This document shows positions 1-53,336 of a stretch of 60,060 nucleotides of DNA, piece after piece. Position 1 is the first letter of the stretch. Every line of letters starts with the position of its first letter. Under the pieces are notes generated by a model. That model was not told the DNA's origin, did no database searches, and worked only from the letters and a program-made list of their open reading frames with translations. This DNA is from Rubrivivax sp. (GTDB lineage Bacteria; Pseudomonadota; Gammaproteobacteria; Burkholderiales; Burkholderiaceae_C). Where the stretch lies: the NCBI GenBank assembly GCA_016789865.1, contig JAEUPC010000109.1, positions 1 to 60,060 of the forward strand. The letters run 5' to 3'. A program made the position numbers and the translations under genes.

Positions 1-327
<327 letters not shown>

Positions 328-1428: not shown

Positions 1429-2226
1429 ATGCCGCACCCACCGCATGAACCGGATCTGCCCGTGCCACCCGGCGCGGGCGCCGGCTGGATTGCGTTGCGT
1501 GCCGGCGAACTGCCCGCCGCCCCCGGGCCCGGCGAAGTGCAGGTGTTCCTGGCCTCGCTGGACAACCCGCCCTGGCCCGGCGAAACCCTGCGCGCCGCCC
1601 TGGAACCTGCCGAGCTGGCCCGGGCCGAGCGGTTCCACTTCGAGCGGCACCGGCGCCACTTCATCCACGCGCGCGGGCTGCTGCGGCATCTGCTGGCCCG
1701 CGCCCTTGGCAGCGACCCGCATGCACTGAGGTTCGCCTTCGGTCCGCAAGGCAAGCCCGGCCTCGAGGCACCCGAGCAGACGGGCCCGCGCACGCTGGAC
1801 TTCAACCTCTCGCACTCCGGCGGCCTGGGAGTGGTTGCTCTCAGCGACGGCGCGTCGGTCGGCGTGGACATCGAAGCCCCGCGCGCCGTGCCCGAACTGC
1901 TGGCCATCGCGCGACAGAACTTCGCTGCCGGCGAGCTCGCCACTCTCCAGGCCCTGCCGGCCGGGCAGCAACCCGACGCCTTCCTCGCCTGCTGGACGCG
2001 CAAGGAGGCCTTCGTGAAGGCGCTGGGCGGCGGCCTGTCCGTCGCGCTCGACTCGTTCGAGGTGTCGCTCGACCCCCGGCAGCCCGCGCAGCTGCTCTCC
2101 AGCGCCGACCCACGCCACCCGCGCGAAGAATTCACGCTTGGCGCTAACCGCACGCCTGAAGGGGCGTGGACGGCCGTGGTCGTGCGCCGTGCACGGGCGA
2201 GCCTGCGGACTTTCTCACTGCTCTGA
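1429..2226 (+). CDS. Sfp-type 4'-phosphopantetheinyl transferase
   Basis: The enzyme transfers the phosphopantetheine arm of CoA to the active-site serine of acyl and peptidyl carrier domains, converting apo- to holo-synthase. The 265-residue product is in the Sfp-family range. It shows the P1-like FNLSHSGG block, the Mg-binding GVDIEAP motif (Asp147, Glu149) and the WTRKEAFVK motif (Trp189, Lys192, Glu193). Upstream, FERHRRHFIHARGLLRHLL matches the family N-terminal helix. The ATG at 1429 is preferred; an in-frame GTG at 1372 would add 19 Pro-rich residues, and neither has a clear ribosome binding site. The gene leads the PKS/NRPS cluster on the same strand and is the obvious activator of its eight carrier domains. 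Confidence 0.9.
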   Translation: MPHPPHEPDLPVPPGAGAGWIALRAGELPAAPGPGEVQVFLASLDNPPWPGETLRAALEPAELARAERFHFERHRRHFIHARGLLRHLLARALGSDPHALRFAFGPQGKPGLEAPEQTGPRTLDFNLSHSGGLGVVALSDGASVGVDIEAPRAVPELLAIARQNFAAGELATLQALPAGQQPDAFLACWTRKEAFVKALGGGLSVALDSFEVSLDPRQPAQLLSSADPRHPREEFTLGANRTPEGAWTAVVVRRARASLRTFSLL

Positions 2227-2388
2227 GCCGTCCCCCGAGTTCGAGGCGCCGTTCGGCGTTGCCTCAGCCGATAGGATCGCCCGCCGCCTCCCGACCGACG
2301 GCTCGAATCGCGGGAGTGACATGCCCCGCCCCGCGCGCCGCGGTTGCATGACACCGCTGCGTGAGCCGAAGGGGGCCACGCCACGATC

Positions 2389-3171
2389 ATGACCACCTCG
2401 CCCTGGCTGACCAGCTTCCTGCCCCGCCCCAACGCGCGTGTGCGCCTGTTCTGCTTCTCCTACGCAGGCGGGGGTGGTGCGGTCTATCGCCCCTTCGCGC
2501 TGGCCCTGCCCGACACGGTCGAGGCGCTGGCCGTGCTGCTGCCGGGCCGCGAGCGCCGGCTGCGCGAGCCCGCGCTCGCCTCCATCAGCGCCATCGTCGA
2601 GGGCCTCGTGCCAGCGCTGCGCGACTTGCTCGACCGCCCCTTCGCCTTCTTCGGCCACAGCATGGGGGCGCTGGTGGCCTTCGAGCTGGCGCGGGCCCTT
2701 CCGGCCTACGGCCTGCCCTCGCCGGGGCACCTGATGATCTCGGCGCGGCGCGCCCCGCACCTGCGCGAGCCCGATCCGCCGCTTTCGCACCTGCCCGACG
2801 ACGCGTTCATCGCCGCCATCGACCAGCGCTACGGCGGCATCCCGGCGGAGATCCTGCAACACCGCGACGTGCTGGAGCTGCTGCTGCCCGCGCTGCGCGC
2901 CGACATGGCCGCGATCGAGAACCACCGGCACGAGCCGGGGCCCACGCTGCCCTGCCCCATCGCGATGTTCGGTGGCCACGACGACACACGGGCCGGCCCC
3001 GACCTGCTGGCACCGTGGCAGGAGCAGACGCAGGCCCGCACGCTGATGCGGCAGTTCGCGGGCGGTCATTTCTACTTCAACGACGCCGGCGTGCGCGGCC
3101 AGCTCATCGCCGAGATGACGCGGCTGCTGCAGCCGCTGCTCGCGCCGCCCTGCCCGGTGGGCGCCCCCTGA
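2389..3171 (+). CDS. Type II thioesterase (GrsT/RifR-like alpha/beta hydrolase)
   Basis: The 260-residue protein begins with the family block RLFCFSYAGGGGAVYRPFA and has the nucleophile elbow GHSMG (Ser91), an acidic residue in FGGHDD (Asp198) and the catalytic His in GGHFYF (His227). Type II thioesterases remove aberrant or decarboxylated acyl groups from carrier domains, keeping PKS/NRPS lines running. The gene ends 35 bases before the first PKS gene and is probably co-transcribed with it. Because no C-terminal thioesterase domain exists anywhere in the assembly line, this stand-alone enzyme is also a candidate for product release, although that is not the usual role of the family. The 162 bases upstream (2227-2388) contain no gene and may hold the cluster promoter, but no convincing -35/-10 pair was found. 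Confidence 0.9.
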   Translation: MTTSPWLTSFLPRPNARVRLFCFSYAGGGGAVYRPFALALPDTVEALAVLLPGRERRLREPALASISAIVEGLVPALRDLLDRPFAFFGHSMGALVAFELARALPAYGLPSPGHLMISARRAPHLREPDPPLSHLPDDAFIAAIDQRYGGIPAEILQHRDVLELLLPALRADMAAIENHRHEPGPTLPCPIAMFGGHDDTRAGPDLLAPWQEQTQARTLMRQFAGGHFYFNDAGVRGQLIAEMTRLLQPLLAPPCPVGAP

Positions 3172-3206
3172 CCCCCGGCACGCCAGCCACATTGACGACG
3201 CACGCC

Positions 3207-6200
3207 ATGGCCACCCGCCAGCCCGACAGCGACCCGGCGCGCGCCGTGGCCATCGTCGGCATCGGCTGCCGGTTTCCCGGAGGCGTCGTCGATCCGCAGG
3301 GCTTGTGGCAGTTGTTGAGCCAGGGGCGCGACGCCGTCGGCGAGATCCCGCCCGAGCGCATCGACCTCGCCCGCTACTTCGACCCGCGCCCGGCGACGCC
3401 GGGGCACATGTCCACGCGCTGGGGCGGCTACCTCGAGCGGCTGGAAGAGTTCGACGCCGGCTTCTTCGGCATCGCGCCGCTGGAAGCCGAACGCATGGAC
3501 CCGGCGCAGCGCCTGGTGCTGGAAACCGCCTGGGAAGGCCTGGAAGACGCGCAGGTCGACACCGCCACACTCGACGGCAGCCGCACCGGCGTGTTCATCG
3601 GCCAGTGGCTGAGCGACTTCGAAGGGCGCCTGTTCTCCGACCCCGACACGGTGGACTTCTACATGACCACCGGCAGCGGGCGCTACGCCACCTCGGGCCG
3701 GCTGTCGTACCTGCTCGGGCTGCGCGGGCCCAGCTTCACGGTGGACACCGCCTGCTCGTCGTCGCTGGTGGCCGTGCACCAGGCCGTGCGCAGCCTGCGC
3801 GAAGGTGAATGCACGCTGGCGCTGGCCGGCGGCGTGAACGTCATCCTGCAGCCGCACATCCACATTGCCTACTCGCAAAGCCGCATGATGGCCACGGACG
3901 GCCGCTGCAAGTTTGGCGACGCGCGCGGCGACGGCTACGTGCGCAGCGAAGGCGCGGCCATGCTCGTGCTGAAGCCGCTGGCCGCCGCGCGCGCCGACGG
4001 CGACCGCATCTACGCCGTCATCCGCGGCAGCGCGGTGAACAACGACGGCCGCAGCAGCGGCTCGATGGGCACGCCCAGCCGCACCGGCCAGGCCGAACTG
4101 CTGCGCACGGCCTACACCGACGCCCGCATCGACCCGGCCGAGGTCGGCTGCATCGAGGCCCACGGCACCGGCACGCGCGCCGGCGACCCGGTGGAACTCG
4201 GCGCGCTGGCCGACGTGCTCGGCCCCGGCCGCGCCGAGGGCCGGCGCGCCTGGGTCGGCTCGGTGAAGACGAACCTCGGCCACACCGAGGGCGCCGCCGG
4301 CGTGGCCGGCCTGGTCAAGCTGGCGCTCGCCATCCACCACCGCGTGGTGCCGGCCAGCCTGCACTGCCGCGACCTCAACCCGGCCATCGCCTGGGACGCC
4401 GCGCCATTTGCGCTGGCGCGCCAGGCGCAGCGCTGGGAAGCGGCGCACCGCATAGGCGGCGTCAGCGCCTTCGGCATTGCAGGCACCAACGCCCACATCG
4501 TGTTGAGCGACGCCGGCCCGCCCGCCACGGCGCCGGCGGCAGACAGCCCCGCCTCGCTGCCCGAGCCGCCACACCACCGCGGGCTGCAACCGGCACCCCA
4601 CCTGCTCGTGCTGTCGGCACAGGGTCCCGAGGCGCTGCGCGAGCTGGCCGCGCGCCATGCCGAGCGCCTGGCCACGCTGGCCGCTCTGCCCGCCGGCGAT
4701 GCGGAACCGGCGCTGCGCAACCACCTGCATGCCGCGGCCACGCGGCGCACGGCCCTGCGCGAGCGCGCTGTCTTCGTCGTCGACAGCGGCGCGCAGGCCG
4801 CGGCGCAACTGGCGCAGCGCCTGGCCGCCTTTGCGCAGGGCGAGGCCGCCACCGCCCAGGGCCGCAGCAGCGGCGCCGCGCGCCCCAAGGTGGCCTTCAT
4901 CGTGCCCGGCCAAGGGGCGCAGTGGGCCGGCATGGCGCGCGAGTTGCTGCAGCGCGCGCCCGCCTTTCGCCAAGCGCTGCAGGAGTGCGACCGCGCTGCC
5001 CAGCCGTGGCTCGGCGAATCGCTCGTGCGTCAGCTCGAACTCGACGAGGGCGCCAGCGGCTGGCGCCTCGACCAGATCGACGTCATCCAGCCCGCGCTCG
5101 TCGCGCTGGCGATCGCCTACGCGCGCTGGCTGCAGTCGATGGGCGTGCAGCCCGATGCGGTGGTCGGCCACAGCATGGGTGAAGTGGGCGCGGCGTGCAT
5201 CGCCGGCGCGCTGAGCATCGAGCAGGCGATGCGCATCGTCTGCCGCCGCAGCGCGCTGATGCGCCGCACCAGCGGCCAAGGCGCGATGGCGCTGGTGGAA
5301 CTCTCCACCGACGACGCGCAGGCGCGCATCGCCGGCCTCGAAGACCGGCTGGCGGTGGCGGTGAGCAACAGCCCGCGCTCCAGCGTGATCTCCGGCGACC
5401 CGCAGGCAGTGCAGTCGGTGATGCAGGCGCTGGAGCGCGACCAGATCTTCTGCAGGCTCGTGAAGGTGGACGTCGCCTCGCACAGCCCGCAGATGCAGCC
5501 GCTGGCCGACGAACTGCAGGCCGAACTGGCCGACCTCGTGCCCAGTGCGCCAGCCATTCCGATGGTGTCGACCGTGCGCGCCCGCGCGGTGGCCGGCGCC
5601 GAGCTCGACGCCACCTACTGGGCCGCCAACCTGCGCCAGCGCGTGCGCTTCACCGAAGCCGTGCGCGCGCTGCTGGAAGACGGCATCGGTTGCTTCGTCG
5701 AACTGGGCCCGCACCCGGTGCTGCTGCCGGCGGTGCAGCAGACTGCGCAGGCGCTGGCACCCGACGCCGAAGTCGCATGCGTGGCCTGCGGTCGGCGCAA
5801 CGAGGCCGAGGCCGTGAACCTGGTCGCCGCGGTGGGCAGCCTGTGGACGCATGGCCTGAAACCCGACTGGACCGCGCTGTACGGTGGCGCGCACGCCTTC
5901 ACCGAACTGCCCAGGACGCCGTGGCAACGCGAGCGCCTGTGGGTTCGCGCCGCCGAACTGCAGGCGGCCGGCCCGGCCCGCCAGCGGCCGGGAGCGACCC
6001 GATCCGCCCCATCGACCCCGCGCCACGCAATCCTGCCGGCGCCGTTGGAGCTCGGCGGCGACCCGCCGGCCCATGTCTGGGACGTTCAGATGCGCCCGGC
6101 CTGGCACCCGCATCTGGCTGAGCACCGGCTGCATGGCAGCGCCGTGCTGGCCGCCTCGGTCTTCGTCGAACTCGCGGCAGCGGCGGCTCGGTCGCTCCAG

Positions 6201-9076
6201 CCTCGGGCCGACGGCACCGTGTCGGCATTGAGCGCTGAGCCGGTCCGCCTGTCGTCGCTGGCGTTCTCGCAGGCGCTGTACCTGAACGCCGACGGCGCCA
6301 CCGCGGTGCAATTGCGCGCCGAACCCACAACAGCCGGGCACCGGCTGGTCGCCTACAGCGAGGGGCCGGCCGGCTGGGTTCAGCACTTCGGCGCCACCTT
6401 GGGCGCGGCAACGGAAGACCGCCGCCCAGCGTCTCGCGCAACCGCCCCTCTGGCGCCGCCAGCCCTGCCACAGACAGGCGCACAGCTGTACTCGCTCCTG
6501 CAGAGCCAGGGCGTGCAGTTCGGCGGCGTGCTGCAAGCACTGGGCGAGATTCGCGTACGGGGCGATGCAGTCGAGGCCGAGCTGCACGCGCCCGCGGGCG
6601 GCGATGCCGGCGGGCCATGGTGCGTGGCACCCTGGGCGCTGGACGCGTGCTTCCAGCTCGCAGCGGGCCTGCTCGCCGGGCAGGCCCTCTGGATGCCCGT
6701 CGGCGCCGATCACGTCGAACTGCGGCCGCACTCGAAAGCGACGCAGACGCCGAGCCGCGTCCGCCTGCGCCCGCGTGCCAGCGAAGGCGCGCAGGAAGTG
6801 ATGGACCTCGAGCTGCTGGCCGACGCGGAGCCCGTGCTGTCAATGCGCGGGCTGCGCCTGGCGCGCCTGGATGCCGCGGCATCGGCGCGGCCGCAGCCGC
6901 TGCTGTGGCAGCTGCACTGGCCGATTCAGGCAGCGCCGGCGGCGGCAGTGGGGTCCGCCGCGCGCGCCTGCGTCGTCGTGGCCGACGGCGGACCGCTGAC
7001 CAGCGCACTGACCTCGCAGCTCGCCGGCAGCTCGGCTGTGCTGACCTCAGACGCCAACGCGATGCAGTGGCAGGCCGCACTCCATGCCGCCGCGGCCAGC
7101 GCCGGCGCCGCAGGCATCGACATCGTTCTGCTCGCCACGACGCTCGCACAGCCGGCGGTGGCCGCGACGCGCCCGCCGGGCACCGAGACGCTGCCGCCGA
7201 TGGCAGTCGGCACCGCGCCCGACGCCGCTGCGCTGATGCCCTTCCTCCAGGCGCTGCAGCGGGCGGCGGCGTTCGATGCGGTGCCGCGTCGCTGCTGGCT
7301 CGTGACGCGCGGCGCGCAAGTGGTCGCCGGCGCAGACGGCGCACGACTGGCACCGGGGCAGTCCGCACTGGCCGGCTTGCTGCGCACCGCGGCATCCGAG
7401 TGGCCAACGTTGTGGGGTGGCAGCATCGACCTCGACCCCGAAACAGATCTGGCCACCCAGGCTGCGGCGGTGGTGCAGACGCTGGCCGGCGGCGCACCGG
7501 CCGACGCTGCCTGGCGCGCCGGGCAGCGCCACGTCGCACGCCTGCGCAGCGCCCCGGCGAGCACGTCCGCCGCCGCCGCATGGCAACTGCCCAGCGACCG
7601 CTCGGTGCTGGTCACAGGCGGGCTCGGCGGCGTGGGCTTCGCGCTGGCGCAGTGGCTGGTGGAACGCGGCGCGCGTCACCTGCTGGTCCTGGGGCGCACG
7701 CCGCTGCCGCCGCGCGCGGTCTGGTCACGAACAGCCCCCGGCACGGCCACCGCCAAAGCGCAGGGGCAGGTCCGTCAGCTGGAAGCGATGGGCGCCAGCG
7801 TGCATCACCGCGCGCTCGACGTCGCCGATGGTGCCGCGCTGGCCCGGTGTCTGGCCGATTTCGCCTCCGAGCAGCGGCCGCCAATCGGCAGCGTCTTCCA
7901 CGCCGCCGGCGTCACCGACGACCGGCTGCTTCAGGACCTCGACGCGGCTTCGATCGACACCGTGATGCTCGGCAAGGTGCAAGGCGCCTGGCACCTGGAC
8001 CGCCTGTTGCCCGAACTGGATCACTTCGTGCTCTTCTCCTCCGTGGCGGCCCTGCTGCCGCAGCCCGGGCAGGCCAGCTATGCGGCTGCCAACGCCGCGT
8101 TGGACGCGCTCGCACATCGGCGCCGCGCCGCAGGCCAGGCCGCGCTGAGCGTGAACTGGGGGGTGTGGCAGGGCCTTGGCTTCGCCGCCACCGCCGGGGG
8201 CGAGCAGGCGCTGGCTGCGCTCGCAAGGTCTGGCCTCGGGGCGTTCTCCGCGTCGCAAGGGCTGCAGGTGTTGCAGCGCCTGCTCGCCGAGCGCGCCCCG
8301 GCCAGCGGCCGCAGCGGTGGGAGCGGTGGCAGCGAAGGAACGCCGCCGCCAGGTGATTCGTGGGCCGTGCCGATCACGACGCAGGCCGCCGTGCTGCCGC
8401 TGGAGCGCCAGCGTCTGGCCGATGCCGCTGCGCAGGACATCTTGCCTGCTCACGCCGCAGCGCTGCTGCACGAACTGGCGCAGCCTCCCGCCGCCAAGGA
8501 AGGGCCGACCTCCAACGACGATGCAACAGGCCAGGCAGCAGGCAGCCGTGAAGGTGGTGCCGGACTCCTGGCTCAACTTCGCCGCGCCTCTTCGGAACAG
8601 CGCCCGGCGCTGCTGCGACAGCGACTGGCGCAGCTGGCCAGCCGGGTGCTGGGCCTGCCGGCCGCGCGGCTGGATGCGCGCACGCCGCTGGGCAGCTATG
8701 GGCTGAACTCATTGATGGCGCTGGAGCTGCGCAACGGCATCGAACGCGACCTGCAACTGCCGCTGTCGGCTACGGTGCTGTGGAACTACCCGACGCTGAC
8801 CACCCTGGCCGATCACCTGCTCGCCCGCGCGATGCCGGCTCAGCCGATGGCGGAGGTGGGCGGACCCAGTGCCGAGTCCATCGGTGCGCCAGGGCCCGCG
8901 CCAGTGGCCACGCCCCCTGCGAAAGCCGTCGCATCGACAGCCTCGCGGGCCACTACGCCAGCAGCGCAGGCATCGCAGGAGGCCGCGGACAAGGTGGCCG
9001 AGGTGGCCGCCATGTCGGACGCCGAGGCGCTGGCCGCACTCACCCAGCGCAAGCGCGCCAGCCGCGGAGGCCCGCG

Positions 9077-9080
<4 letters not shown>
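3207..9080 (+). CDS. Type I PKS module 1: KS-AT-DH-KR-ACP
   Basis: 1957 aa from the ATG at 3207, only 12 residues ahead of the KS; there is no loading domain. KS about 13-440 has [13 protein letters not shown] (Cys183), EAHGTGT and KTNLGH, so it is a condensing KS, not a KSQ. AT about 558-855 has GQGAQ, GHSMGE (Ser656) and VASH (756-759), a methylmalonyl-type signature. DH about 905-1180 keeps His973 and Asp1146 but reads HRLHGSAVLA, with Ala for the motif Pro, and GVQFGG in place of the YGP box. The KR starts near 1467 with TGGLGGVG and has Ser1612 and Tyr1625. The ACP has GLNSL (Ser1835), with Asn where Asp is usual. The C-terminal tail has MSDAEALAAL, which resembles a docking helix. Expected output is an alpha-methyl beta-hydroxy or enoyl unit. 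It overlaps the next gene by 4 bases (GTGA). Confidence 0.93.
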
Positions 9081-15813
<6,733 letters not shown>

Positions 15814-15817
<4 letters not shown>

Positions 15818-18800
15818 ACATGACCCCAACCTTTCCCGCCGCGGAGGAACTGAGCCCGGTCAAGCGCGCGCTGCTCGAGATCCGCGAGCTGCGCGCGCGC
15901 GTGGCCGAGCTCGAAAGCGCGGCCGCGGCGCCCATCGCCATCGTCGGCACCGGGATGCGCCTGCCCGCGGGCATCCGCAGCCTGGAAGCGCTGTGGTCTT
16001 TGCTGCAGGGTGGCGGCGACGCCATCGGCCCCACCCCGGCCGAGCGCTGGGACCTCGACGCGCTGTTCGATGCCGACCCTGACACGCCCGGCAAGATGTT
16101 CACGCGCGAGGGCGGCTTCATCGATGCGCCCTACGACTTCGACGCCGAGTTCTTTGGCATCGCGCCGCTGGAGGCCGAGACCATGGACCCGCAGCAGCGC
16201 CTGCTGCTGGAGTGCGCCTGGCACGCCTTCGAAGACGCCGGCATCGCCCCCGGCTCGCTGCACGGCTCGCCCACCGGCGTCTTTCTCGGCATCAGCAACA
16301 GCGACTACGGTCGCATGCTGTTCAGCCATCCGCAGCGCATCGACCCCTATTTCTGCGTCGGCACCGCGTTCAGCGTGGCCGCCGGCCGCATCGCATACGT
16401 GCTGGGTCTGCAGGGGCCGGCGATGTGTGTGGACACGGCCTGCTCATCGTCGCTGGTGGCCCTGCACCTGGCTGCGCAGAGCTTGCGCCGGGGCGAGTGC
16501 AGCCTGGCGCTGGCCGGCGGCATCAACCTCATGCTGTCGCCGGAGATCAACATCAACTTCTCCAAGGCGCGCATGATGGCGCCCGACGGTCGCTGCAAGG
16601 CCTTCGATGCCGCAGCCGACGGCTATGTGCGCGGCGAAGGCTGCGGTGTCGTGGTGCTCAAACGCCTGGCCGACTGCACCACCGCCGACCGCGTGCTGGC
16701 GGTGCTGCGGGGCAGCGCGCTCAACCAGGACGGCCGCAGCAGCGGACTCACCGCCCCCAACGGGCCAGCCCAGGAAGCGGTGCTGCGCGCCGCCTTGCAG
16801 CAGGCCGGCCTGCAGTCGACCCAGGTGGGCTATGTGGAGGCCCACGGCACTGGCACGTCGCTCGGTGACCCGATCGAGCTGCAGGCGCTCGGCGCCGTCA
16901 TGGGCGGTGCCGATCGCGCCGGTGCGCCGCTGGCCGTCGGTTCGATCAAGACCAACCTCGGCCACCTGGAGGCCGCCGCCGGCATCGCCGGGGTGTTCAA
17001 GGCCATTGCAATGCTGCGACATGGCCAGATCCCCCCGCACCTGCACCTGCGCCAACCGACACCGCATTTCGACTGGGCGGCCAGCCGCATGCAGGTGCCC
17101 ACCAACTTGACGCCGTGGCCGGCAAGCGGCGAGCCGCGGCGCGCCGGCGTCAGCTCGTTCGGCTTCTCGGGCACCAATGCCCATGTCGTCCTCGAGGAGG
17201 CCCCGGCTCCTGCGGCCGCCTCGCCAGCCGGCATGCCCTCGGCCACCACGAACCGCCCCTGGGAGGTGCTGACGCTCAGCGCGCGCGACCCGCGCGCCCT
17301 GGCCGAGCTGGCCGCGGTCGCGGCCGATGCGGTGCAGGCCGCACCGGCGCGCTGGGTGGAGTTCGCGCACACCGCCAACTGCGCACGCACACCCCTGGCG
17401 CACCGCGCCAGCGTGCGCGCGCGTGACGCGGCTTCACTGGCCGACGGCCTGCGCGCGCTGGCACGCGGCGAATCCGCCGACCGCGCCATGCGAGGCCAGC
17501 GCAAGGGCGCACCACGCGTCGCGTTCCTCTACACCGGCGGCGGCGCACAGACGGTGGGCATGGCACGTGCGCTGTACGACGCCGCCCCGATCTTCCGGCG
17601 CACGTTCGACGCCGCGGCCGCGTTCCTCGAGCCTCTGCTCGGCATCGGCCTGCGCGAGGTGATCGACGCACCCGGCGGTGACCGCTCGCCGCTGCACGAG
17701 ACGCGCCACGGCCAGCCCGCGCAGGTGGCAGTGGCTCTCGCGCTGACCGACCTTTGGGCCTCGTGGGGCGTGAGGCCGGCGGCCGTGCTCGGGCACAGCC
17801 TCGGCGAATACGCTGCCGCCTACGCGGCCGGGCTGCTTTCGCTGCCGGACGCGCTGCGCATGGTGGTGGCGCGCACGCGGGCCGTTGACGCGCTGGCCGC
17901 CGCTGGCCGCATGGCCACGATCTTCGCCGCCCCCGCCGCAGTGCAGGCGCAGATCGTTTCCAGCGCGAGCACGGCCGTCATCGCCGCCTTCAACGGCCCG
18001 GAGCAGGTGGTCGTCAGCGGCACGCCCGAGGAGGTGGAAGCGCTGGCCACACACTTCGAGCGCAGCGGCACTCGCGTGTCGCGCCTGCGCGTGGCATACG
18101 CCTCGCACTCGCCGATGATGGAGCCGGCACTGGCCCCCTTCGAGGCGTCGATCGCCGACATCGCCTATGGCGAGCTGCACACGACGTTCGTCTCCAATCG
18201 CACCGGTGCGCCGGTCACGATGGCACAGGTGGCGCGGGCGGCGTACTGGCGCGACCACCTGCGCCAGCCGGTGCGCTTCTCCGAGTCGATGCGCGCGCTG
18301 GCGGCACTGGGCATCACGCATTACGTCGAGATCGGCCCGCACCCGGTGCTGGTAGGCATCGGCGCGCTGTGTGTCGAAGGCGACGACGTCGCCTGGCTGC
18401 CCTCGTTGCGCCGCGACGATGACGACTGGGACGTCATGCTCGAGTCGCTGCAGCAGCTGCACGCGGCCGGGCTCGACCCCGACTGGCAAGGTTTCGACGC
18501 CGGCGCCGGCACGCGCAAGGCGGACTTCCCGCTGTACCCGTTCCAGCGTCGCCGCTACCGCCCCGAGTGGCTGGACGAAACACCGGCGGCGTTGGCAGCC
18601 CGCGGCACGGCCGCCTCGCCGGCCACCACCGCCCCCTGGTCGGTGGCCTGTGCCTCGCTGGCCGACCAGTCTCGCCGCGGCCCGATCGGCATCAGCCTGG
18701 ACGGCTACGGGGAGAAGTGGGCGAGCTTGCGGCGCCTGACGCATGGCGTGGCTGCCGCGGCGCTGCGCGAGGCGGGGCTCTTTGCCGACGCGGGCGCCAG

Positions 18801-20298: not shown

Positions 20299-28748
<8,450 letters not shown>

Positions 28749-28765
28749 CGGCAGCGGTGCCGGCA

Positions 28766-28786: not shown

Positions 28787-28815
28787 CGCACCGCCACGTA
28801 CATCAGGGCCAGGAC

Positions 28816-37151: not shown

Positions 37152-43680
<6,529 letters not shown>

Positions 43681-43684
<4 letters not shown>

Positions 43685-46600
43685 CGCGAGCGGCCGCGCT
43701 GGACGACCTGCTGCGGCAACTGGCGGCGCTGGACATTCGATTGGCGCTGGACGGCGACCGGCTGAATGTCAACGCACCCAAGGGCACGCTGACCGCCGAG
43801 CTGCGAGCCGAGCTCGCCGCCCACAAGGAGGCGTTGAAGGAGTCCTTGAAGGACGGGCGGGCTGGGGCGGCTGGAGCGGCGCTGCCCTCGTCGGCCCCTG
43901 CCACCGCCGCGTTGCCTGAACTGCGGGCAGTGCCGCGCCAGCCGCGCATGCCGCTGTCGCATACGCAGCAGCGCCTGTGGTTCCTGCGTCAGATGGACCC
44001 GGGCAGCAGCAACTACAACGTGGTGAGCCTGTTCCGCATCCGCGGTCCGCTCGACACCGCGGCGCTGGCCGCAGCCATGGACGACCTGGTGCGGCGCCAC
44101 GAAACGTTGCGCACGCATTTCGAAGCGGCCGAAGGCAGCCCCTACTGCGTGGTGCACCCACCCGAGCAGGTGCGCGCGCCGATTCAGCAGCTCGACCTGG
44201 AAGCGGCGCCCGCCGCCGAGCGCCAAGAGCGTGCGATGCACGCCCTGATGGAGGACGTGGCCGCGCCTTTCGACCTGGCGCGTTGCCCGCTGCTGCGGCT
44301 GAAGCTTGTGCGCCTGCAGGCCGAGGAGCATCTGCTGGGGATCGTCGTCGACCACATCGTCGCCGACGGCATGTCGGTGGGCGTGTTCTTCGCCGAGTTG
44401 CAGGCGCTGTATCGCCAACACCAGGGTGGTGGCGCCGCGGCGCTGCCGCCGCTGCCGGTGCAGTACCTGGACGTAGTGCAGTGGCAGCACGAGGTGCAGG
44501 CCGCCGGTGCGATGAGCAGGCACCTGGACTACTGGAAGCAGCAGTTGCAGGGCCTGCCGCCCGTGCTGGCCCTGCCCATCGACCGGCCTCGCCCGCGCGT
44601 GCAGACGCACCGCGGCGGGCGCCGCATGGAGATCTTCCCGCCCGCGCTGCAGGGGGCGTTGAAGGGCCTCGCGCGGCGCGAGGGCGTGACGCTGTACATG
44701 GTGCTGCTGGCCGCCTACCAGGTGCTGCTGCACCGGCTGAGCGGCGAAGTGGACTTCGCGGTGGGAACCGCGGTCGGCGCGCGCGACCGGCCCGAGCTGC
44801 AGCGCGTCATCGGCTTCTTCGCCAACAACATCGTGCTGCGCGCGGACATTGCCGGCGACCCCACGGTGAGCGAACTGCTGCACCGCGTACGCGACGTCGC
44901 CACCAAGGCCTACGCGCACCAGGACATGCCGTTCGACCTGCTGGTCGAGGCGCTGGCGCCGCGGCGCGAACTGGACCACTCGCCGCTGTTCCAGGTGCTG
45001 TTCGTGCTGCACAACCTGATGGTCGACCGCTTCGAGCTGGGCGCGGCCGTGTGCAGCGCCGTCGAGCCGCGGCATCGCACCTCGCGCTTCGACCTTGCGG
45101 TGGACATCTTCGACCTCGGCGAGGGGCTGCGCACCTACTTCGAATACAACGCCGACCTGTTCGACGAGCCCACGATCGAGCGGTTGATGGGCCACTACCG
45201 CAGCCTGCTGGAGGGCATGCTGGCCGACCCCGGGCAGCGCGTGAGCACGCTGCCCCTGGTCGGCGCCACGTCGGGCACCGGCGCGGCCGCGCTGGCGCTG
45301 CAATGCGGGCCGGCCCTCGAAACGCCTGAAGTCGCCACGGCGCACGGCCTGTTCGAGACGCAGCTCAGGCGCAGCCCGCACGCCGAGGCGGTGGTCTTCG
45401 GCACGCAGTGCCTGAGCTACGAGGCGCTGGACCAGCGCGCCAACCGCCTGGCTCACGAACTCATCGCCCGCGGCGTCACGCCTGACGCGCTGGTGGGCGT
45501 CTACATGGAGCGCGGCATCGAACTGGCCGTGGCGTTGCTGGCCGTGCTGAAGGCCGGCGCCGCCTACGTGCCGCTGGACCCGGCGTTCCCGAAGGAGCGC
45601 ATCGAGTTCATGCTCGGCGATGCGGCAGTGGCGGCGCTCGTGACGCACGCCGCTCTCGGCGATGCGCTGGCGCGCGGAGATTCGCTGGCGCGAGGCGCGC
45701 TGGCCCATGTGCCGCAGCTGGCGCTGGACCGCGATGCCGCGGCCATCGCCGCCCGGCCCGCCACACCGCCGGCATGCGCCGTGTCCGGCAGCGACCTCGC
45801 CTACGTCATCTACACCAGCGGCTCCACCGGGCGCCCCAAGGGCGTGATGATCGAGCACGCCGCGGTGGTGAACTTCCTGCGCTCGATGCACCACGAGCCG
45901 GGCATCGCGGCGGGCGACCGCTGGGTGTCGGTGACGACGCTGTCGTTCGACATCTTCGGCCTCGAACTGTGGGGCCCGCTCAGCGCCGGCGGCACGGTGG
46001 TGCTGGCCAGCCGCGCCACTGCGCTGGACGGGCGGGCGCTGTCCGACTTGCTGCAGGAGCAGCGCGCCACGGTGCTGCAGGCCACGCCGGCGACGTGGCG
46101 GTTGCTCATCGAGGCCGGCTGGTCGGGGCTGCCGGGCCTGAAGATGCTGTGCGGCGGCGAAGCGCTGCCGCGCGACCTGGCCGGCCGCCTGCTGCAGCTG
46201 GGGGGCGAACTGTGGAACATGTACGGGCCGACCGAGACGACGATCTGGTCGACGCTGACGCGCATCACCGACGCTGCCGAGCCCATCACCATCGGCCGCC
46301 CGATCGCCGGGACCTCGGTGGCCATCCTCGAAGCGTCGGGGCAGCTGGCCGTGCCGGGGGTGGCCGGCGAGCTGTGCATCGGCGGCGCCGGCGTCGCGCG
46401 TGGTTATCACCAGCGGCCCGAACTCACCGCGGAGAAGTTCGCCACCCTCTCGCTGGCCGGCGGCGCCCCCGAGCGCTGGTACCGCACCGGCGACCTCGCG
46501 CGCCTGCGCAGCGACGGCCGCCTCGAATTCATCGGGCGGCGCGACAACCAGATCAAGCTGCGCGGCTATCGCATCGAGCTGGGCGAGATCGAAGCGGCGC

Positions 46601-47241
46601 TGGCCGCCGCGCCGGGCGTGCAGCAGGCCGTGGTGGTGGTGCGCGAAGACGTGCCGGGCGACCAGCGTCTGGTGGCCTATGTCGTGGCCCGCGACGGCTT
46701 CGCGGCCGACGCCGTGCGCACGGCACTGCGTGCCCGACTGCCGGAGTACATGGTGCCCAACCATGTCGTGGCGCTGGGCGCCCTGCCGCTCACGCCCAAC
46801 GGCAAGATCGACCGCAAGGCCCTGCCTGCGCCTGCACCGGAGGCGCCCGCCGATGCCGGCCCGCCTGTGGTGATGGGGCCGGCCGAGCAGCGCGTGGCCG
46901 ACGCCTGGCGTGAGTTGCTCGGGCTGCCGCGCGTGGGCCTGCAGGACAACTTCTTCGACCTCGGCGGCCACTCGCTGCTGCTGGTGAGGCTGCAGGCGCG
47001 GCTGCAGCGCGAGTTCGAGCGCGAGCTGCCGCTGGTCGAGCTGTTCCAATACCCCACCGTGCAAGCGCAGGCCCGCCGGCTCGCGGGCACCAGGGAACTG
47101 GAGGGCTCGAATCGTGCATTTGGCCCGGATGGACAGCACGGCGAGAGCGGCCAGCCCCCCTCGGCGCTGCAGCGCGCCCGGGCGCGCGCTGAAGAATTGC
47201 AGCGCAGATCGCGCCCCCATGAGCCCACGTCCGCCCGCTGA
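43681..47241 (+). CDS. NRPS module 7: TubC-like docking, C-A(Gly)-PCP
   Basis: 1186 aa from a GTG overlapping the module 6 stop. Residues 1-55 (LDDLLRQLAALDIRLALDGD, then LNVNAPKGTLTAELRAEL) match the TubC N-terminal docking domain. The C domain (about 85-520) starts SHTQQRLWFLRQMDP. Its HHxxxDG motif reads DHIVADG, so the catalytic second His (His225) is kept and the first is Asp. The A domain (about 545-1050) has YTSGSTGRPKG, YGPTET, YRTGDLAR and NGKIDRK (Lys1042). Reading the ten pocket positions against GrsA gives D-I-L-Q-L-G-M-I-W-K, one conservative change from the classic glycine code DILQLGLIWK. The PCP is LGGHSL (Ser1098). There is no epimerase, in keeping with achiral glycine. It joins glycine by amide bond to the polyketide acyl chain delivered by module 6. 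Confidence 0.93.
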
Positions 47242-50200
47242 CATTGACGGTTCGCCGATGCCGCCCGACGCCATCGCCATCGTCGGCATGGCCGGGCGCT
47301 TTCCCGGCGCCGCTTCGCTCGAGGACTTCTGGCGCCTGGTGGCCGAAGGCGTAGAGGTCCTCGAGGAGGTCAGCGAGGCCGACCTCGATGCCGCCGGCAT
47401 CGCGCAGGCGCTGCGCCGGCACCCGCAGTTCGTGCGGCGCGGCACCTTCCTGCAGGGCGCCGAAGACTTCGACGCAGGCTTCTTCGGCTACGCCCCGCGC
47501 GAAGCGCAGGTGCTCGACCCGCAGCAGCGCGTGTTCCTCGAATGCGCCTGGGAGGCGCTGGAGCATGCCGGGTACGCCGCCGGGTCGCAGGGCATCCCTG
47601 AGTCGGTGGCGGTGTACGCCGGCGCCGGCATGCACTCGTACCTCGTCGCGCAGGTGCTGCGCAACCCGGCGCTGGCCGAGGCCGTCGGCGGCTACCAGCT
47701 GATGCTGGGCAGCGACAAGGACTTCCTGGCCACCCGCGTGAGCTACAAGCTCGGGCTGAAGGGCCCGAGCATGTCGGTGCAGACCGCCTGCTCCACCTCG
47801 CTGGTGGCCGTGCACGTGGCCTGCCGCGCGCTGCAACGCGGCGAATGCGACATGGCGCTGGCCGGCGGCGTGTCGATCCTCTTCCCGCAGCGCGGCGGCT
47901 ACCTCTACCAGGAGGGCATGATCTTCTCGCCCGACGGCCGCTGCCGGCCGTTCGATGCCGCGGCCCAGGGCACACGGGCCGGTGCCGGCGCCGGGGTGGT
48001 GGTGCTCAAGCGGCTGGACCAGGCGCTGGCCGACGGCGACACCGTGCACGCGGTGATCCGCGGCATCGCGGTCAACAACGACGGCGCGGCCAAGGCCGGC
48101 TACACCGCGCCCAGCATCGATGGGCAGGTCGAGGTCATCGCCACCGCGCAGGCGCTGGCCGGCGTCGGTCCCGAGACCATCACCTACCTGGAAGCCCACG
48201 GCACCGCCACGCCGCTGGGCGACCCGATCGAGGTGGCCGCGCTGAAGCAGGCCTTCGATGGCGGCGGCACGCCCGCCGGGCACTGCGCCCTCGGGGCCCT
48301 GAAGGCCAACATCGGCCACCTCGACGCCGCCGCGGGCGTGGCCGGGCTCATCAAGACGACGCTGGCGCTGGCACATCGCGAATGGCCGCCGCTTGTCAAC
48401 TTCGAGCGGCCCAGCGCTGCGCTGGGCCTCACGGGCAGCCCGTTCACGGTGCCGGTGCATCTTGTGCCGTGGCAAACGCCGGCCGGCGTGCCGCGACGGG
48501 CCGGCGTCAGCTCGTTCGGCATTGGCGGCACCAACGCGCACGCGGTGCTCGAAGAGGCGCCGATCGTTCCGGCCGAAGCCGAACCCGCGCCCGGCCCTCA
48601 CCTGCTCGTCTGGTCGGCCAAGACCGCCACCGCGTTGCAGGCCGCGGGCCAGCGGCTGGCCGAGCACCTGGTGGCCCAGCCACACCTGTCGCTGGCCGAT
48701 GCGGCATTCACGCTGCAGGTGGGCCGGCAGGCCTTCGGCCATCGCAGCATGGTGGTCGTGCGCGATCGTGCGCACGCGCTGCAGGCACTCGCCGAGCCCG
48801 CGCATGGCGGCGTGGTCAGCGGCCAGCACGAAGGCGCGGCGCGCCCGGTGGCCTTCCTGCTCAGCGGGCAAGGCAGCCAGCACACGGGCATGGGCCACGA
48901 GCTGTACGAACGCGAGCCGCTCTACCGCGCGGCCGTCGACGAGTGCGCCGAGGTGCTGCAGCCGCTGCTGGACGCGGACATTCGCGAGATCATGTTTTCG
49001 CCGGCCCAGGCCACCCGGCTGACCGAGACGCGCTTTGCGCAACCGGCGCTGTTCGTCACCGAAGTCGCCCTGGCCCGGCTCTGGCTGGCCCACGGCATTG
49101 CGCCGGCGGCCATGCTGGGGCACAGCCTCGGGGAGCTCGTGGCGGCGCAGCTGGCCGGGGTGCTGTCGCTGGCCGACGCGCTGGCGCTGGTGGCGGCGCG
49201 CGGCCGGCTGATGCAGGCCCAGCCCACTGGGCGCATGGCGGCGGTGCTGCTCGACGCCGCCGAGCTGGCCACCTGGCTCGGCGACGGCGTCGAGCTGGCA
49301 GCGGCCAACGCGCCCGGCTTGAGCACGGTGGCCGGCCCGGCGGCGGCGGTGGATGCGCTGGTCGCCCGCATGGAGCGCGCCGGCATCCAGACCCGGCCGC
49401 TGCAGACCTCGCACGCCTTTCACAGCGCGATGATGGAGCCGGCCATGGCGCCGCTGCGCCAAGTCGTTCGTGGCCTGCGCCTGTCGCCGCCGAAGGTGCC
49501 GTTCCTTTCCAACGTCACCGGCACCTGGATCACCGACGCCCAGGCAGTGTCGCCCGATTACTGGGCCGAGCACTTGCGGCGGCCGGTGCAGTTCGAAGCC
49601 GGGCTGCGCGCGCTGTCGCAGCGCCTGCCGCAGGCCGTGCTGCTGGAGGTCGGCCCGGGCCAGGCGTTGATCGCCATGGCCCGCGGCTGCCTGGGCGATC
49701 GGCCCGCCCATGCCGCGCCGCTGCTGGCCACCTCGCTGCCCAAGGCAAGCGACGCGCGCACGGCCGGCCAGGCGTGGCTCGAAACGCTGGGGCGGCTGTG
49801 GCTGGCCGGCTGTGCCATTGATTGGCCGGTGCCCCAGCGCGGCGAAGGCAACCCACGGCCACCACGCCGCGTGCCGCTGCCGACCTACCCGTTCGAGCGC
49901 CAGCGGTACACCGTCGTGGCAGCGCCAGGGGCCGCCCTGCCGGCGGCACCGGGCGCCGCGGCCGGCGGCTTGGCCTCCGCCGCCCGCGCGGGGGCACGCG
50001 CCCACGTGACCCGGTCATCGCACATCGACGATTGGTTCTACGCCCCCACCTGGGCGCGCGACGACAGCGTCGCGCTGGCCGGGCCGGCCACCGCGGTGGC
50101 CGCGGCTGAAGCGCCGCGCTGGCTGGTGCTCGGGCAGTGCGACGAGCTCACCGACGCCGTCGTCGGCGCCCTGGCAGCACGCGGCTTGAGCACGCTGCGG

Positions 50201-52042
50201 GCCGATGCCGCATCGGCCTTCGAAGCCGTGGGGCCGGGCCGCTGGCGGGTTCGCGCCGATTCGGCCCCAGACCTCGAGCGGCTCATGGACGCAGCCACTG
50301 CGCCCGCGCCGCTGGCCGGCATCGTGCACCTGTGGGGGCTGGCCGCCGGGCCGCGGGACACCGCCGCTACATCCGCGGCCACATCCGCGGCCACATCCGC
50401 GAGCGCGCCCGTTTGGCCGCTGCCGCCCCACGAGCCGCACTACGACGGCCTGGTGGCACTCGCCTGCGTGCTGCCCGACCTCGGCGAGGATCAGCGGCTG
50501 CGCTGCCTGCACGTCACGCTCGGCGCCGAGTCGGTGCTGGGCGAGCCGGTCGCCAATCCGCACCATGCCGTCGCGCTCGGAGCGGTGCTGACGCTGCCCA
50601 GCGAGATGCGCGGGCTGGCGATGCGCTCGATCGACCTTGCGGGCGCCGGCGCGGCGCGACCGCTTGACATCCCCACGGCTGCGCAGGCAATCGCCGAAGA
50701 GGCCCTGCTCGACGACATCGAACCCCGCGTGGCCTACCGGTCGGGCCTGCGGTGGGTGCGCCGGCACGAGCGACTGGCTTTGCCTGCCACTGCCACGGGC
50801 AGCCAGGGCGCACACAGGTTGCCGCTGCGCGAGCGCGGCTGTTATCTCATCACCGGCGGGCTGGGCGGCATGGGCTTGGCCATCGCCCGCTGGTTAGCCG
50901 AGCGCTGCCGCGCACGGCTGGTGCTGGTTTCGCGCCGGCCGCTGCCGGCCCGCGACGAGTGGGCCACGTTGTTGGCCAACGCGGGCACCGATCCGCAGCT
51001 GCGCAACGCCCTCATCGCCATCCGGCAGGCCGAAGCCGCCGGCGGCGAAGTGCTCGTCGTGGGCGCCGACGCTGCCGACCTCGCCGCCATGAGCGCGGCG
51101 CTGGCCGCCGCCAAAGCTCGCTTCGGCCCGCTGCATGGCGTGTTCCATGCCGCCGGCGTGGCCGGGCGCGGCGTGGTCGCCCGCCGCGCCACCGCGGCCG
51201 ACGCGCGCGCGGTGCTGGCCCCCAAGCTCGGCGGGCTGCGCGTGCTGCAAGACCTGCTGGGCGACACCGAACTCGATCTGATGGTGCTGATGAGCAGCGT
51301 CAACACCATCCTGCCCGCCGCCGGCGCCTGCGACTACGCGGCGGCCAACGCCGCGCTCGAGGCCTTCGCCGACAGCGCCGCGCGCCCCGCGGGCTGGCAC
51401 CAGGTGGTGGCGATCCGCTGGGGCGCCTGGCGCGACGTGGGCATGGCCGCCCACCTGCGCGTACCCGAAGAGCGGCGCGCGGGCTGGGCCGCACATCTGG
51501 CCGGTGCCATCGGCGCCGATGCGGGCGTGGAAGCGCTGGGCCGCGTGCTGGCCTCGCGCCGGCGCCACGTGGTGGTGGAAACCTACGATGTCGTCCAGGC
51601 CCTGGAGCACCTGCGCCGCCCGGCCCACGCTGCGCCGGAGCCAGGCCCCAGCTCCGGAGCCAACTCCACGGACAGCTCCGCGGCCGGCCAAGCGGCAGCC
51701 GGCGCGCCCGCCGTATCGGGCCCCGCGACCGAACGCCCGGCGCTTTCGACTTCCTTCGAGGCCCCGCAAGACGAGCGGGAGCGGCGCCTCGCGACCATCT
51801 GGGAGAACGTGCTGGGCATCCGCGGCATCGGCGTCAACGACGACTTCTTCGAGCTCGGCGGCCATTCGCTGATGTTCACGCGCGTGCTGGCGCTGGTCGA
51901 CGAGAGCTTCGGCACAAGGCTGCCGCTGCGCGAAGTGTTCGATGCATCGACCATCCGCCTGCTGGCCGGGCGCCTGCCCGACACGCCGTCGCCCGGTGGC
52001 GCCGCCGGTGACGGGCAGGCACGCGAGGTGCTCGAGATCTGA
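47219..52042 (+). CDS. Type I PKS module 8: KS-AT-KR-carrier, terminal, no thioesterase
   Basis: 1607 aa from the ATG at 47219, which overlaps the NRPS end by 23 bases; an ATG at 47258 is an alternative. The KS has VQTACSTSLVAVH (Cys191) in place of DTACSSSL, the pattern of KS domains that accept peptidyl chains in NRPS-PKS hybrids. The AT has GHSLGELVAA (Ser636) and HAFHSAMM (732 onward), malonyl-type. A structural half-KR leads to the KR (TGGLGGMG near 1207; MSS with Ser1360; Tyr1373), which lacks an LDD motif, so it looks A-type-like. The carrier domain has FFELGGHSL (Ser1550) and is PCP-like in sequence. The protein ends about 58 residues later with no TE, reductase or C domain. The predicted step is malonyl extension of glycyl thioester and ketoreduction, giving a 4-amino-3-hydroxybutyryl unit. 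Confidence 0.92.
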   Translation: MSPRPPADIDGSPMPPDAIAIVGMAGRFPGAASLEDFWRLVAEGVEVLEEVSEADLDAAGIAQALRRHPQFVRRGTFLQGAEDFDAGFFGYAPREAQVLDPQQRVFLECAWEALEHAGYAAGSQGIPESVAVYAGAGMHSYLVAQVLRNPALAEAVGGYQLMLGSDKDFLATRVSYKLGLKGPSMSVQTACSTSLVAVHVACRALQRGECDMALAGGVSILFPQRGGYLYQEGMIFSPDGRCRPFDAAAQGTRAGAGAGVVVLKRLDQALADGDTVHAVIRGIAVNNDGAAKAGYTAPSIDGQVEVIATAQALAGVGPETITYLEAHGTATPLGDPIEVAALKQAFDGGGTPAGHCALGALKANIGHLDAAAGVAGLIKTTLALAHREWPPLVNFERPSAALGLTGSPFTVPVHLVPWQTPAGVPRRAGVSSFGIGGTNAHAVLEEAPIVPAEAEPAPGPHLLVWSAKTATALQAAGQRLAEHLVAQPHLSLADAAFTLQVGRQAFGHRSMVVVRDRAHALQALAEPAHGGVVSGQHEGAARPVAFLLSGQGSQHTGMGHELYEREPLYRAAVDECAEVLQPLLDADIREIMFSPAQATRLTETRFAQPALFVTEVALARLWLAHGIAPAAMLGHSLGELVAAQLAGVLSLADALALVAARGRLMQAQPTGRMAAVLLDAAELATWLGDGVELAAANAPGLSTVAGPAAAVDALVARMERAGIQTRPLQTSHAFHSAMMEPAMAPLRQVVRGLRLSPPKVPFLSNVTGTWITDAQAVSPDYWAEHLRRPVQFEAGLRALSQRLPQAVLLEVGPGQALIAMARGCLGDRPAHAAPLLATSLPKASDARTAGQAWLETLGRLWLAGCAIDWPVPQRGEGNPRPPRRVPLPTYPFERQRYTVVAAPGAALPAAPGAAAGGLASAARAGARAHVTRSSHIDDWFYAPTWARDDSVALAGPATAVAAAEAPRWLVLGQCDELTDAVVGALAARGLSTLRADAASAFEAVGPGRWRVRADSAPDLERLMDAATAPAPLAGIVHLWGLAAGPRDTAATSAATSAATSASAPVWPLPPHEPHYDGLVALACVLPDLGEDQRLRCLHVTLGAESVLGEPVANPHHAVALGAVLTLPSEMRGLAMRSIDLAGAGAARPLDIPTAAQAIAEEALLDDIEPRVAYRSGLRWVRRHERLALPATATGSQGAHRLPLRERGCYLITGGLGGMGLAIARWLAERCRARLVLVSRRPLPARDEWATLLANAGTDPQLRNALIAIRQAEAAGGEVLVVGADAADLAAMSAALAAAKARFGPLHGVFHAAGVAGRGVVARRATAADARAVLAPKLGGLRVLQDLLGDTELDLMVLMSSVNTILPAAGACDYAAANAALEAFADSAARPAGWHQVVAIRWGAWRDVGMAAHLRVPEERRAGWAAHLAGAIGADAGVEALGRVLASRRRHVVVETYDVVQALEHLRRPAHAAPEPGPSSGANSTDSSAAGQAAAGAPAVSGPATERPALSTSFEAPQDERERRLATIWENVLGIRGIGVNDDFFELGGHSLMFTRVLALVDESFGTRLPLREVFDASTIRLLAGRLPDTPSPGGAAGDGQAREVLEI
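50369..50401 (+). repeat. 12-base tandem repeat (2.75 copies) in PKS module 8 linker
   Basis: ACATCCGCGGCC is repeated in frame and codes for a TSAA linker series between the half-KR strands. Copy-number change would keep the frame. Confidence 0.75.
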
Positions 52043-53328: not shown

Positions 53329-53336
53329 CCTGCGCC

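What the first reader, a model, noticed from the sequence alone, without database searches (positions are those of the whole stretch)
1429..52042. Eight-module PKS-NRPS line, one module per gene, product not recognised
Seven PKS modules and one NRPS module sit on eight separate, almost all overlapping genes, with their own phosphopantetheinyl transferase, type II thioesterase and transporter. The module series DH-KR / DH-ER-KR / MT only / DH-MT-ER-KR / DH-MT-KR / DH-ER-KR / C-A(Gly)-PCP / KR matches no characterised pathway I can recall. The predicted product is a methyl-branched, largely reduced acyl chain amidated to a glycine-plus-malonate unit. The domain reading is direct; colinear use and novelty are inference.
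Basis: partly seen in the sequence, partly recalled or inferred. Interest (0 to 1): 0.82.

Follow-up and report, generated by a model that had tools for sequence, protein, structure and literature searches.

The report
Uncharacterised polyketide-peptide assembly line family
This stretch holds a complete set of eight enzyme "workstations" that probably build a branched fatty-acid-like chain capped with a small unusual amino acid; close relatives with the same order of steps exist in other bacteria, but I found no known product for any of them.

Summary
The line is not unique: nine further near-complete lines share its core, and two (Hydrogenophaga borbori, Hydrogenophaga PRO41) have exactly its M1-M8 series. 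My paper searches found no product.

Refinements: (1) module 7 carries a glycine code and module 8 is KS-AT-KR-ACP, so the end should be 4-amido-3-hydroxybutyrate (acyl-GABOB). (2) AT1 is methylmalonyl-type in the 9 lines read, so not every branch comes from methyltransferases. (3) KR2 lacks the catalytic Ser and KR4 the Tyr in 9 of 9 lines, so "largely reduced" is uncertain. (4) An empty site in a same-genus genome places the cluster between a GntR and an SMR gene. (5) The line ends without a thioesterase; three relatives add a Val-coded module plus thioesterase, five a Gly-coded module without one. How the product is released is open.

The parts
1429..2226 (+). 4'-phosphopantetheinyl transferase (left end of the cluster)
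   Evidence: Pfam ACPS 63 bits, AASDHPPT_N 43 bits; found beside the TEII in 7 of 9 other near-complete lines, on the opposite strand in 5 of these
2389..3171 (+). type II (RifR-like) thioesterase; editing and possibly product release
   Evidence: RifR 3fla E 1e-51; directly before module 1 in 9 of 9 other near-complete lines (split in two by a frameshift in G482)
3207..9080 (+). module 1: KS-AT-DH-KR-ACP, no N-terminal docking domain; AT of methylmalonyl type (IDVIQP/GHSMG/VASH)
9077..15817 (+). module 2: KS-AT-DH-ER-KR-ACP; KR has Ala at the catalytic Ser
15814..20298 (+). module 3: KS-AT-MT-ACP (alpha-methyl beta-keto)
20295..28748 (+). module 4: KS-AT-DH-MT-ER-KR-ACP; KR Tyr replaced by His
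28816..36270 (+). module 5: KS-AT-DH-MT-KR-ACP; KR has Thr at the catalytic Ser
36267..37151 (+). EamA-type (DMT superfamily) transporter inside the operon
   Evidence: Pfam EamA 31.0 bits, cut-off 28.2; 1-2 copies in 9 of 9 other near-complete lines: before the last DH-ER-KR module in 7, after it in 2
37148..43684 (+). module 6: KS-AT-DH-ER-KR-ACP
43681..47241 (+). module 7: TubC_N docking, C, A (glycine), PCP
47219..52042 (+). module 8: KS-AT-KR-ACP, last module; ends two residues after the ACP profile hit, no TE

Best explanation
A complete cis-AT hybrid PKS-NRPS line, used colinearly from m1 to m8. m1 has no docking domain and no loading module, so it takes a diffusible acyl starter of unknown identity and adds methylmalonate. 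m2 extends with malonate. m3 adds an alpha-methylated unit and leaves a ketone. m4 and m5 add C-methylated units (CH2-CH(CH3), then CH=C(CH3)). m6 adds a saturated unit. m7 amidates the chain to glycine. m8 adds malonate and its intact KR makes 4-amido-3-hydroxybutanoyl-ACP (acyl-GABOB). With an acetate starter, one methyl at M3 and every reductive domain working, the free acid is R-CH=C(CH3)-CH2CH2-CO-CH(CH3)-CH2-CH(CH3)-CH=C(CH3)-CH2CH2-CO-NH-CH2-CH(OH)-CH2-COOH with R = CH3: C22H37NO5, [M+H]+ 396.274. No cis thioesterase exists, so release is by the cluster's TEII or by cyclisation; EamA probably exports the product. Shown: domains, order, conservation, insertion limits. Inferred: substrates, oxidation states, release, export. 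Biological role unknown; a secreted small bioactive lipid-peptide is my default guess.
For: Domains. Active sites: the 7 KS keep Cys and both His, the 7 ATs keep GHSxG, KR8 keeps K-S-Y-N, the 8 carrier domains keep the Ser (NSL in ACP1, DSL or HSL in the rest). Glycine code DILQLG[ML][IV]W at the first NRPS position in 14 of 15 genomes read; linear gramicidin synthase A 1230-1723 (Gly module by recall) is the best solved match, 3e-196. Methylmalonyl-type AT1 in 9 of 9 lines read, with erythromycin-synthase ATs among its best solved matches and CurL well below. Core DH-ER-KR / MT / DH-MT-ER-KR / DH-MT-KR / DH-ER-KR / C-A present in 9 of 9 other near-complete lines; exact M1-M8 series in 2 of 9, M2-M8 in 5 of 9. 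KS mostly clusters by module position. Empty site in G050 bounds the cluster.
Against: No expression or chemistry. KR2 has Ala for Ser in 9 of 9 lines and KR4 has His for Tyr in 9 of 9; if either is dead, that module leaves a ketone and its DH/ER are idle. AT3 of the window carries YASH, a methylmalonyl-like motif (recalled), while the other 8 lines have HAAH, HAFH or QSFH; its nearest solved AT is CurL, so one or two methyls at M3 are possible. AT5 has an odd LAAH motif. No loading module, so the starter is a guess. KS of front modules in the nine-module lines and of M5/M6 in two Hydrogenophaga lines break the position rule. A TEII is not proof of release: CalG, first predicted to release calcimycin, was found to recycle overactivated acyls (PMC10006239, passage).
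Confidence: 0.72

Rival explanations
1. Release by intramolecular attack: the amide nitrogen of the glycine attacks the module-8 thioester, giving an N-acyl-4-hydroxy-2-pyrrolidinone (C22H35NO4 with an acetate starter) without any thioesterase.
For: The m8 genes of the window, G017 and G043 end within two residues of the ACP profile hit, with no TE, and the next gene (SMR) is a chromosomal flank. A five-membered ring is possible; N-acyl pyrrolinones from an amino acid plus malonate are known in other pathways (recalled).
Against: Five Hydrogenophaga lines that go on to a further Gly-coded module also lack a TE, so lack of a TE does not by itself point to a lactam. A TEII is present in the window and in 9 of 9 other near-complete lines and could hydrolyse.
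Confidence: 0.2
2. The chain is oxidised more than the domain list suggests: KR2 and/or KR4 are inactive, giving a polyketone that may cyclise before or after amidation.
For: Ala for Ser in KR2 and His for Tyr in KR4 in 9 of 9 lines, a conserved and therefore perhaps meaningful change.
Against: DH and ER of the same modules are kept in the same 9 lines, which would be odd if the KR were dead; Lys, Asn and one of Ser/Tyr remain. The nearest solved KR (MAS) has Tyr, so activity of the His form stays untested.
Confidence: 0.25
3. A degenerate or truncated line: the window's lineage lost a terminal C-A(-TE) module and makes no finished product.
For: Relatives carry an extra C-A-PCP after the KS-AT-KR module, in three cases followed by a TE; one of these, G078, is of the same genus.
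Against: Four same-genus lines (window, G017, G022, G043) have m8 followed by the same native gene, reading frames of the window are intact, and M8 keeps its active sites, so the short form is stable.
Confidence: 0.07

Closest known systems
Uncharacterised lines in Hydrogenophaga borbori LA-38 (NZ_QVLS01000002.1) and Hydrogenophaga sp. ACE_PRO41 (NZ_JAHBZK010000019.1)
   Same: Identical series M1-M8, TEII first, EamA inside, Gly code at M7, KR-only M8
   Different: One further Gly-coded C-A-PCP module; two EamA genes, placed after M6; PPTase on the other strand; M5 and M6 replaced (M5 KS groups with the M4 clade). No product found in my paper searches that named Hydrogenophaga (listings)
Same-genus MAG contig JACRPO010000021.1 (G017)
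   Same: Same chromosomal site, same last modules (KS of m6 81%, ER of m6 86%, KS of m8 74%), ends without TE
   Different: Nine modules; the first modules differ (DH-ER-KR / KR / DH-ER-KR)
Rhodocyclaceae MAG-172 contig JAEUNL010000064.1 (G084)
   Same: Core modules, Gly module and KR-only module
   Different: Nine modules up to KS-AT-KR, then a Val-coded (recalled) C-A-PCP with a cis thioesterase
Microsclerodermin / pedein pathways of myxobacteria (recalled, not compared)
   Same: Glycine module followed by a malonyl module with KR gives a GABOB unit
   Different: Those are cyclic peptides with many NRPS modules
Stigmatellin and aurafuron PKS of myxobacteria (recalled, not compared)
   Same: One module per gene
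   Different: No glycine module; other release domains

Membership tests
Type I modular cis-AT PKS-NRPS hybrid | Each PKS module has KS, AT, ACP on one chain; NRPS module has C, A, PCP | tested here: met
Type I modular cis-AT PKS-NRPS hybrid | Catalytic residues of KS, AT, C, carrier domains present | tested here: met
   the C motif reads DHIVADG with the second His kept; ACP1 has NSL in place of DSL
Type I modular cis-AT PKS-NRPS hybrid | Reductive domains competent | tested here: inconclusive
   KR1, KR6, KR8 keep K-S-Y-N; KR5 has Thr for Ser; KR2 has Ala for Ser; KR4 has His for Tyr
Type I modular cis-AT PKS-NRPS hybrid | Colinear use of modules | not testable with these tools
   Indirect support only: conserved order and mostly position-specific KS clades
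Type I modular cis-AT PKS-NRPS hybrid | Loading module or starter unit system | tested here: not met
   m1 begins 13-18 residues before the VAIVG motif of its KS, by start codon; no loading ACP or ligase was found in the cluster. Lines that start this way are known (recalled), so this bears on the starter, not on membership
Type I modular cis-AT PKS-NRPS hybrid | Terminal release domain (TE or R) | tested here: not met
   m8 stops two residues after the ACP profile hit; [quoted passage not shown]
GABOB-forming NRPS-PKS pair (as in microsclerodermin, recalled) | Gly-specific A domain followed by a malonyl KS-AT-KR-ACP module | tested here: met
   code DILQLGMIW, AT8 HAFH and KR8 K-S-Y-N; by sequence only
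Microsclerodermin family | Several NRPS modules and a cyclising TE | tested here: not met
   only one NRPS module and no TE in the window; no reference cluster was fetched
New family defined here | TEII, then DH-ER-KR / MT / DH-MT-ER-KR / DH-MT-KR / DH-ER-KR / C-A, with an EamA gene next to the last DH-ER-KR module | tested here: met
   window and 9 of 9 other near-complete lines, G482 read across frameshifts

The most novel reading that the evidence does not exclude
An undescribed family of acyl-GABOB natural products spread over Hydrogenophaga, Rubrivivax-like and Rhodocyclaceae bacteria (with acyl-Gly cousins in Piscinibacter), in which the branched ketone-bearing chain is kept under selection (module series held even where module sequences were swapped) while the tail after GABOB is exchanged between lineages (nothing, Gly, Val-TE). 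In the window's form a TE-less end would release an N-acyl-4-hydroxypyrrolidinone, or an acid through the TEII.
Probability: 0.35. Interest if true: 0.62.

Novelty: new member of a known kind. Interest (0 to 1): 0.5.

Why it matters
It turns one unexplained cluster into a small comparative series of related assembly lines with defined ends, including records titled as named strains (H. borbori LA-38, H. intermedia S1, P. aquaticus KACC 15278) in which product and knockouts can be sought. The series is a natural experiment in how PKS lines change: modules were replaced inside the line without changing the order of chemical steps, the front gained or lost a module, and the tail was swapped. It also poses two testable enzymology questions: how a TE-less line ending in a GABOB module releases its product, and whether KRs with Ser-to-Ala and Tyr-to-His changes, seen in 9 of 9 lines, still reduce.

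Tried and rejected
Considered and rejected: GntR (469-1293) as the cluster's own regulator and SMR (52093-52443) as its exporter. The same-genus genome G050 has MCM-GntR-SMR-MTase-EgtB-like-patatin-gltA with no cluster between GntR and SMR (a PEP-CTERM-like gene lies there, my reading of the motif), so both are flanks. GntR is found in 68 of 81 genus genomes at E <= 1e-60, SMR in 10 of 81 at E <= 1e-25. The KS-AT part of module 8 matches 8 of 81 at E <= 1e-200; 5 of these, the window's own included, are at 68% identity or more, the other 3 at 52% or less.

Considered and rejected: M3 AT as clearly methylmalonyl. YASH is seen only in the window's copy among the 9 lines; the nearest solved AT is CurL.

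Led nowhere: paper searches for a product, a described cluster or a precedent. Searches were seen as listings with abstract starts only; one search found no paper. In PMC12993520 passages report an unspecified T1PKS / NRPS-like / NRPS region in Hydrogenophaga SL48, not comparable from the text. Plasmid collection: 297 records matched the docking-C query at E <= 1e-60, all under 60% identity. Family-wide sample: of 399 genomes, 53 had a match at E <= 1e-60, and apart from the window's own none listed exceeds 43% identity. NCBIfam: no model reached its cut-off for PPTase, TEII, EamA or, in the 25 rows shown, m3; for m8, in the 25 shown, only a generic KR-prefix domain did.

Rows left out of counts: the motif table used the window, G017, G081, G082, G084, G478, G479, G480, G481 and two G083 contigs; G482 (frameshifts), G043, G078, G483 and G484 were not given to it, and the '9 of 9' figures there do not count G083, whose contigs hold neither KR2 nor KR4 and end before the AT1 VASH position. 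The tree left out G482, G483, G484 and the G083 contig C48. G482 is kept in the counts.
Full report
What is there. The window is the whole of contig C79, 60,060 bases, of a 4.59-Mb, 76.9%-complete genome. The genes run on one strand; 7 of the 8 junctions from m1 to m8 (EamA counted) overlap and m4/m5 has a 67-bp gap. Reading frames are intact.

Limits. In a same-genus genome, G050, the order is methylmalonyl-CoA mutase, GntR, SMR, methyltransferase, EgtB-like, one further gene, patatin, citrate synthase, with about 1.1 kb and no cluster between GntR and SMR; that stretch holds a PEP-CTERM-like gene (my reading of the motif). The window, G017, G022 and G043 share the right-hand junction m8-SMR, and the window and G017 share the left-hand one. 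The KS-AT part of module 8 is found at 68% identity or more in 5 of 81 genus genomes, the window's included, with a drop to 52% below them. One of these (G043, contig JALHOU010000062.1, matched by its length of 22,335) is labelled Rubrivivax sp. in its public title.

Relatives. A scan of one genome per species (84,980 species) with the docking-plus-C profile gave 68 stretches, 22 relatives and 21 loci. By identity (45% or more) and architecture I take 14 of the 21 as relatives of this line; the other 7 (Vibrio, Streptomyces, Amycolatopsis, 35-40%) look like other NRPSs. Three of the 14 (L026, L028, L038) are the G017, G078 and G043 contigs by their lengths. I fetched nine further near-complete lines: G017, G081 (H. 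borbori), G082 (H. intermedia), G084 (Rhodocyclaceae MAG), G478, G479, G480 (Hydrogenophaga sp.), G481 (a Pseudomonadota MAG), G482 (P. aquaticus). They were annotated with profiles built from the window, G017, G081, G082, G084 and two G083 contigs; the TEII and PPTase profiles rest on the window alone. All nine have TEII before M1 and the core DH-ER-KR / MT / DH-MT-ER-KR / DH-MT-KR / DH-ER-KR / C-A with one or two EamA genes. H. borbori and Hydrogenophaga PRO41 have exactly the window's M1-M8. H. intermedia, CS4 and bin2 differ in M1-M8 only in that no DH is found in M1. G017 and the Rhodocyclaceae MAG have one more module near the front. G481 and P. aquaticus have NRPS modules in place of M8; the P. 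aquaticus assembly is broken by frameshifts and its architecture is read across them. All five Hydrogenophaga lines and G084 go on to one more C-A-PCP.

Trees. KS and KR trees of 69 and 60 domains group mostly by module position; the KSs of M1 and of the KR-only module form clades with support 1.00. Exceptions in the KS tree: M5 of H. borbori and PRO41 joins the M4 clade and their M6 stands apart; M7 of G084 stands apart; M3 (DH-ER-KR) of G017 and G084 falls near the M6 clade. In the KR tree KR4 and KR5 of H. borbori and PRO41 are sisters, KR3 of G017 and G084 falls with the M2 KRs, and KR1 of G017 and G084 leaves the other M1s. In H. borbori and PRO41 sequence was replaced but the set of domains was kept, which suggests selection on the product. 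Trees were rooted at the midpoint with no outgroup.

Chemistry. The A domain of M7 has the code DILQLGMIW (nine positions read; the tenth, Lys, assumed), which I recall as glycine; 14 of 15 genomes read have DILQLG at this place, the exception being G483 (DFWNIGMVH), whose next module is cut off. The nearest solved A domain is residues 1230-1723 of linear gramicidin synthase A, its glycine module by recall. M8 has AT motif HAFH and an intact KR. Together they predict a 4-amido-3-hydroxybutyrate end. AT1 reads I[DE][VFL][IV]QP / GHSMG / VASH in 9 of 9 lines, which fits the methylmalonyl signature as I recall it; its best solved matches are a type I modular PKS (6iyr) and erythromycin-synthase ATs, with mycocerosic acid synthase next and CurL well below. 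The cluster sits beside a methylmalonyl-CoA mutase gene, which is at least consistent with supply. AT2, AT4, AT6 and AT8 are malonyl-like by motif (YAFH or HAFH); AT5 has LAAH; AT3 of the window has YASH but resembles CurL most. m1 starts 13-18 residues before its VAIVG motif and lacks a docking segment, as expected of a first module; m3, m4 and m5 carry an LSP-type N-terminus and m7 a TubC_N domain. The starter is unknown.

Results against the simple reading. KR2 has Ala where the catalytic Ser should be in 9 of 9 lines (also Gly before it in the window), and KR4 has His in place of Tyr in 9 of 9; in the nine-module lines these are M3 and M5. KR5 of H. borbori and PRO41 also has His, KR5 of the window and G017 has Thr for Ser, and so has the last KR of G084. 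The DH and ER partners of modules 2 and 4 are kept, so I lean to working KRs, but the oxidation level at two positions is uncertain. Pfam sees only the N-terminal part of DH1.

Release. m8 ends two residues after the ACP profile hit; so do the m8 genes of G017 and G043. Lines whose extra module is Val-coded (DALWLG[GA]TF, recalled) carry a Thioesterase domain after it: G084 (94.7 bits), G078 (95.0 bits, cut by the contig end), G083 (33.6 bits, cut by the locus end). That the two G078 contigs form one line is inferred, as both break in the A domain of M7. Five Hydrogenophaga lines have an extra Gly-coded module (DILQFGLIW, recalled) and no TE. TEIIs release products in some polyether pathways (PMC4147253, passages), but CalG was found to recycle overactivated acyls (PMC10006239, passage). 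I put TEII hydrolysis first and lactam formation second.

Novelty. Nothing in my paper searches describes a product for these lines (listings only, library limited to open-licence PMC papers). The kind of system is well known; the family appears undescribed. I could not compare with MIBiG, so 'no characterised relative' is not proven.

Noticed in passing
window 1-327 (-): Start of a methylmalonyl-CoA mutase gene, cut by the contig end, next to the GntR/FCD regulator; the same pair is beside the empty site in G050.
   Followed up: yes
window 52583-55561: Methyltransferase, DinB_2/FGE protein (EgtB-like) and a further gene downstream of SMR, found as a block with patatin and citrate synthase in same-genus genomes with (G017, G022, G043) and without (G050) the cluster.
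   Followed up: partly
KR domains of M2 and M4 in the 9 lines: Ser-to-Ala in KR2 and Tyr-to-His in KR4, conserved at fixed module positions although the rest of the catalytic set is kept.
   Followed up: partly
G481 (L085-L087) and G482 (L088-L090): The KS-AT-KR module is replaced by an NRPS module with code DPRHFG[FY]QA, which I cannot assign, followed by a Gly-coded module.
   Followed up: no
L053-L054, L055-L058 (H. borbori, H. intermedia): A second NRPS-PKS cluster on the opposite strand lies a few kb downstream, with a KS 48% identical to module 8 and two genes that look like alpha/beta hydrolases (by eye).
   Followed up: no
L042, L088-L090: The Piscinibacter aquaticus assembly VOPW01000001.1 shows many frameshifts in this cluster, perhaps sequencing errors.
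   Followed up: no
L036: A contig with this line is filed under Rheinheimera tuosuensis (a gammaproteobacterium, recalled); possible mis-binning or transfer.
   Followed up: no
L092 3636-4304 (-): PEP-CTERM-like gene sitting in the empty integration site of G050.
   Followed up: no
G000:C175 and G000:C21: The window's genome has further NRPS/PKS loci (module-8-like KS-AT at 51% on C175; A-domain matches at 35-41% on C21 and C175).
   Followed up: no
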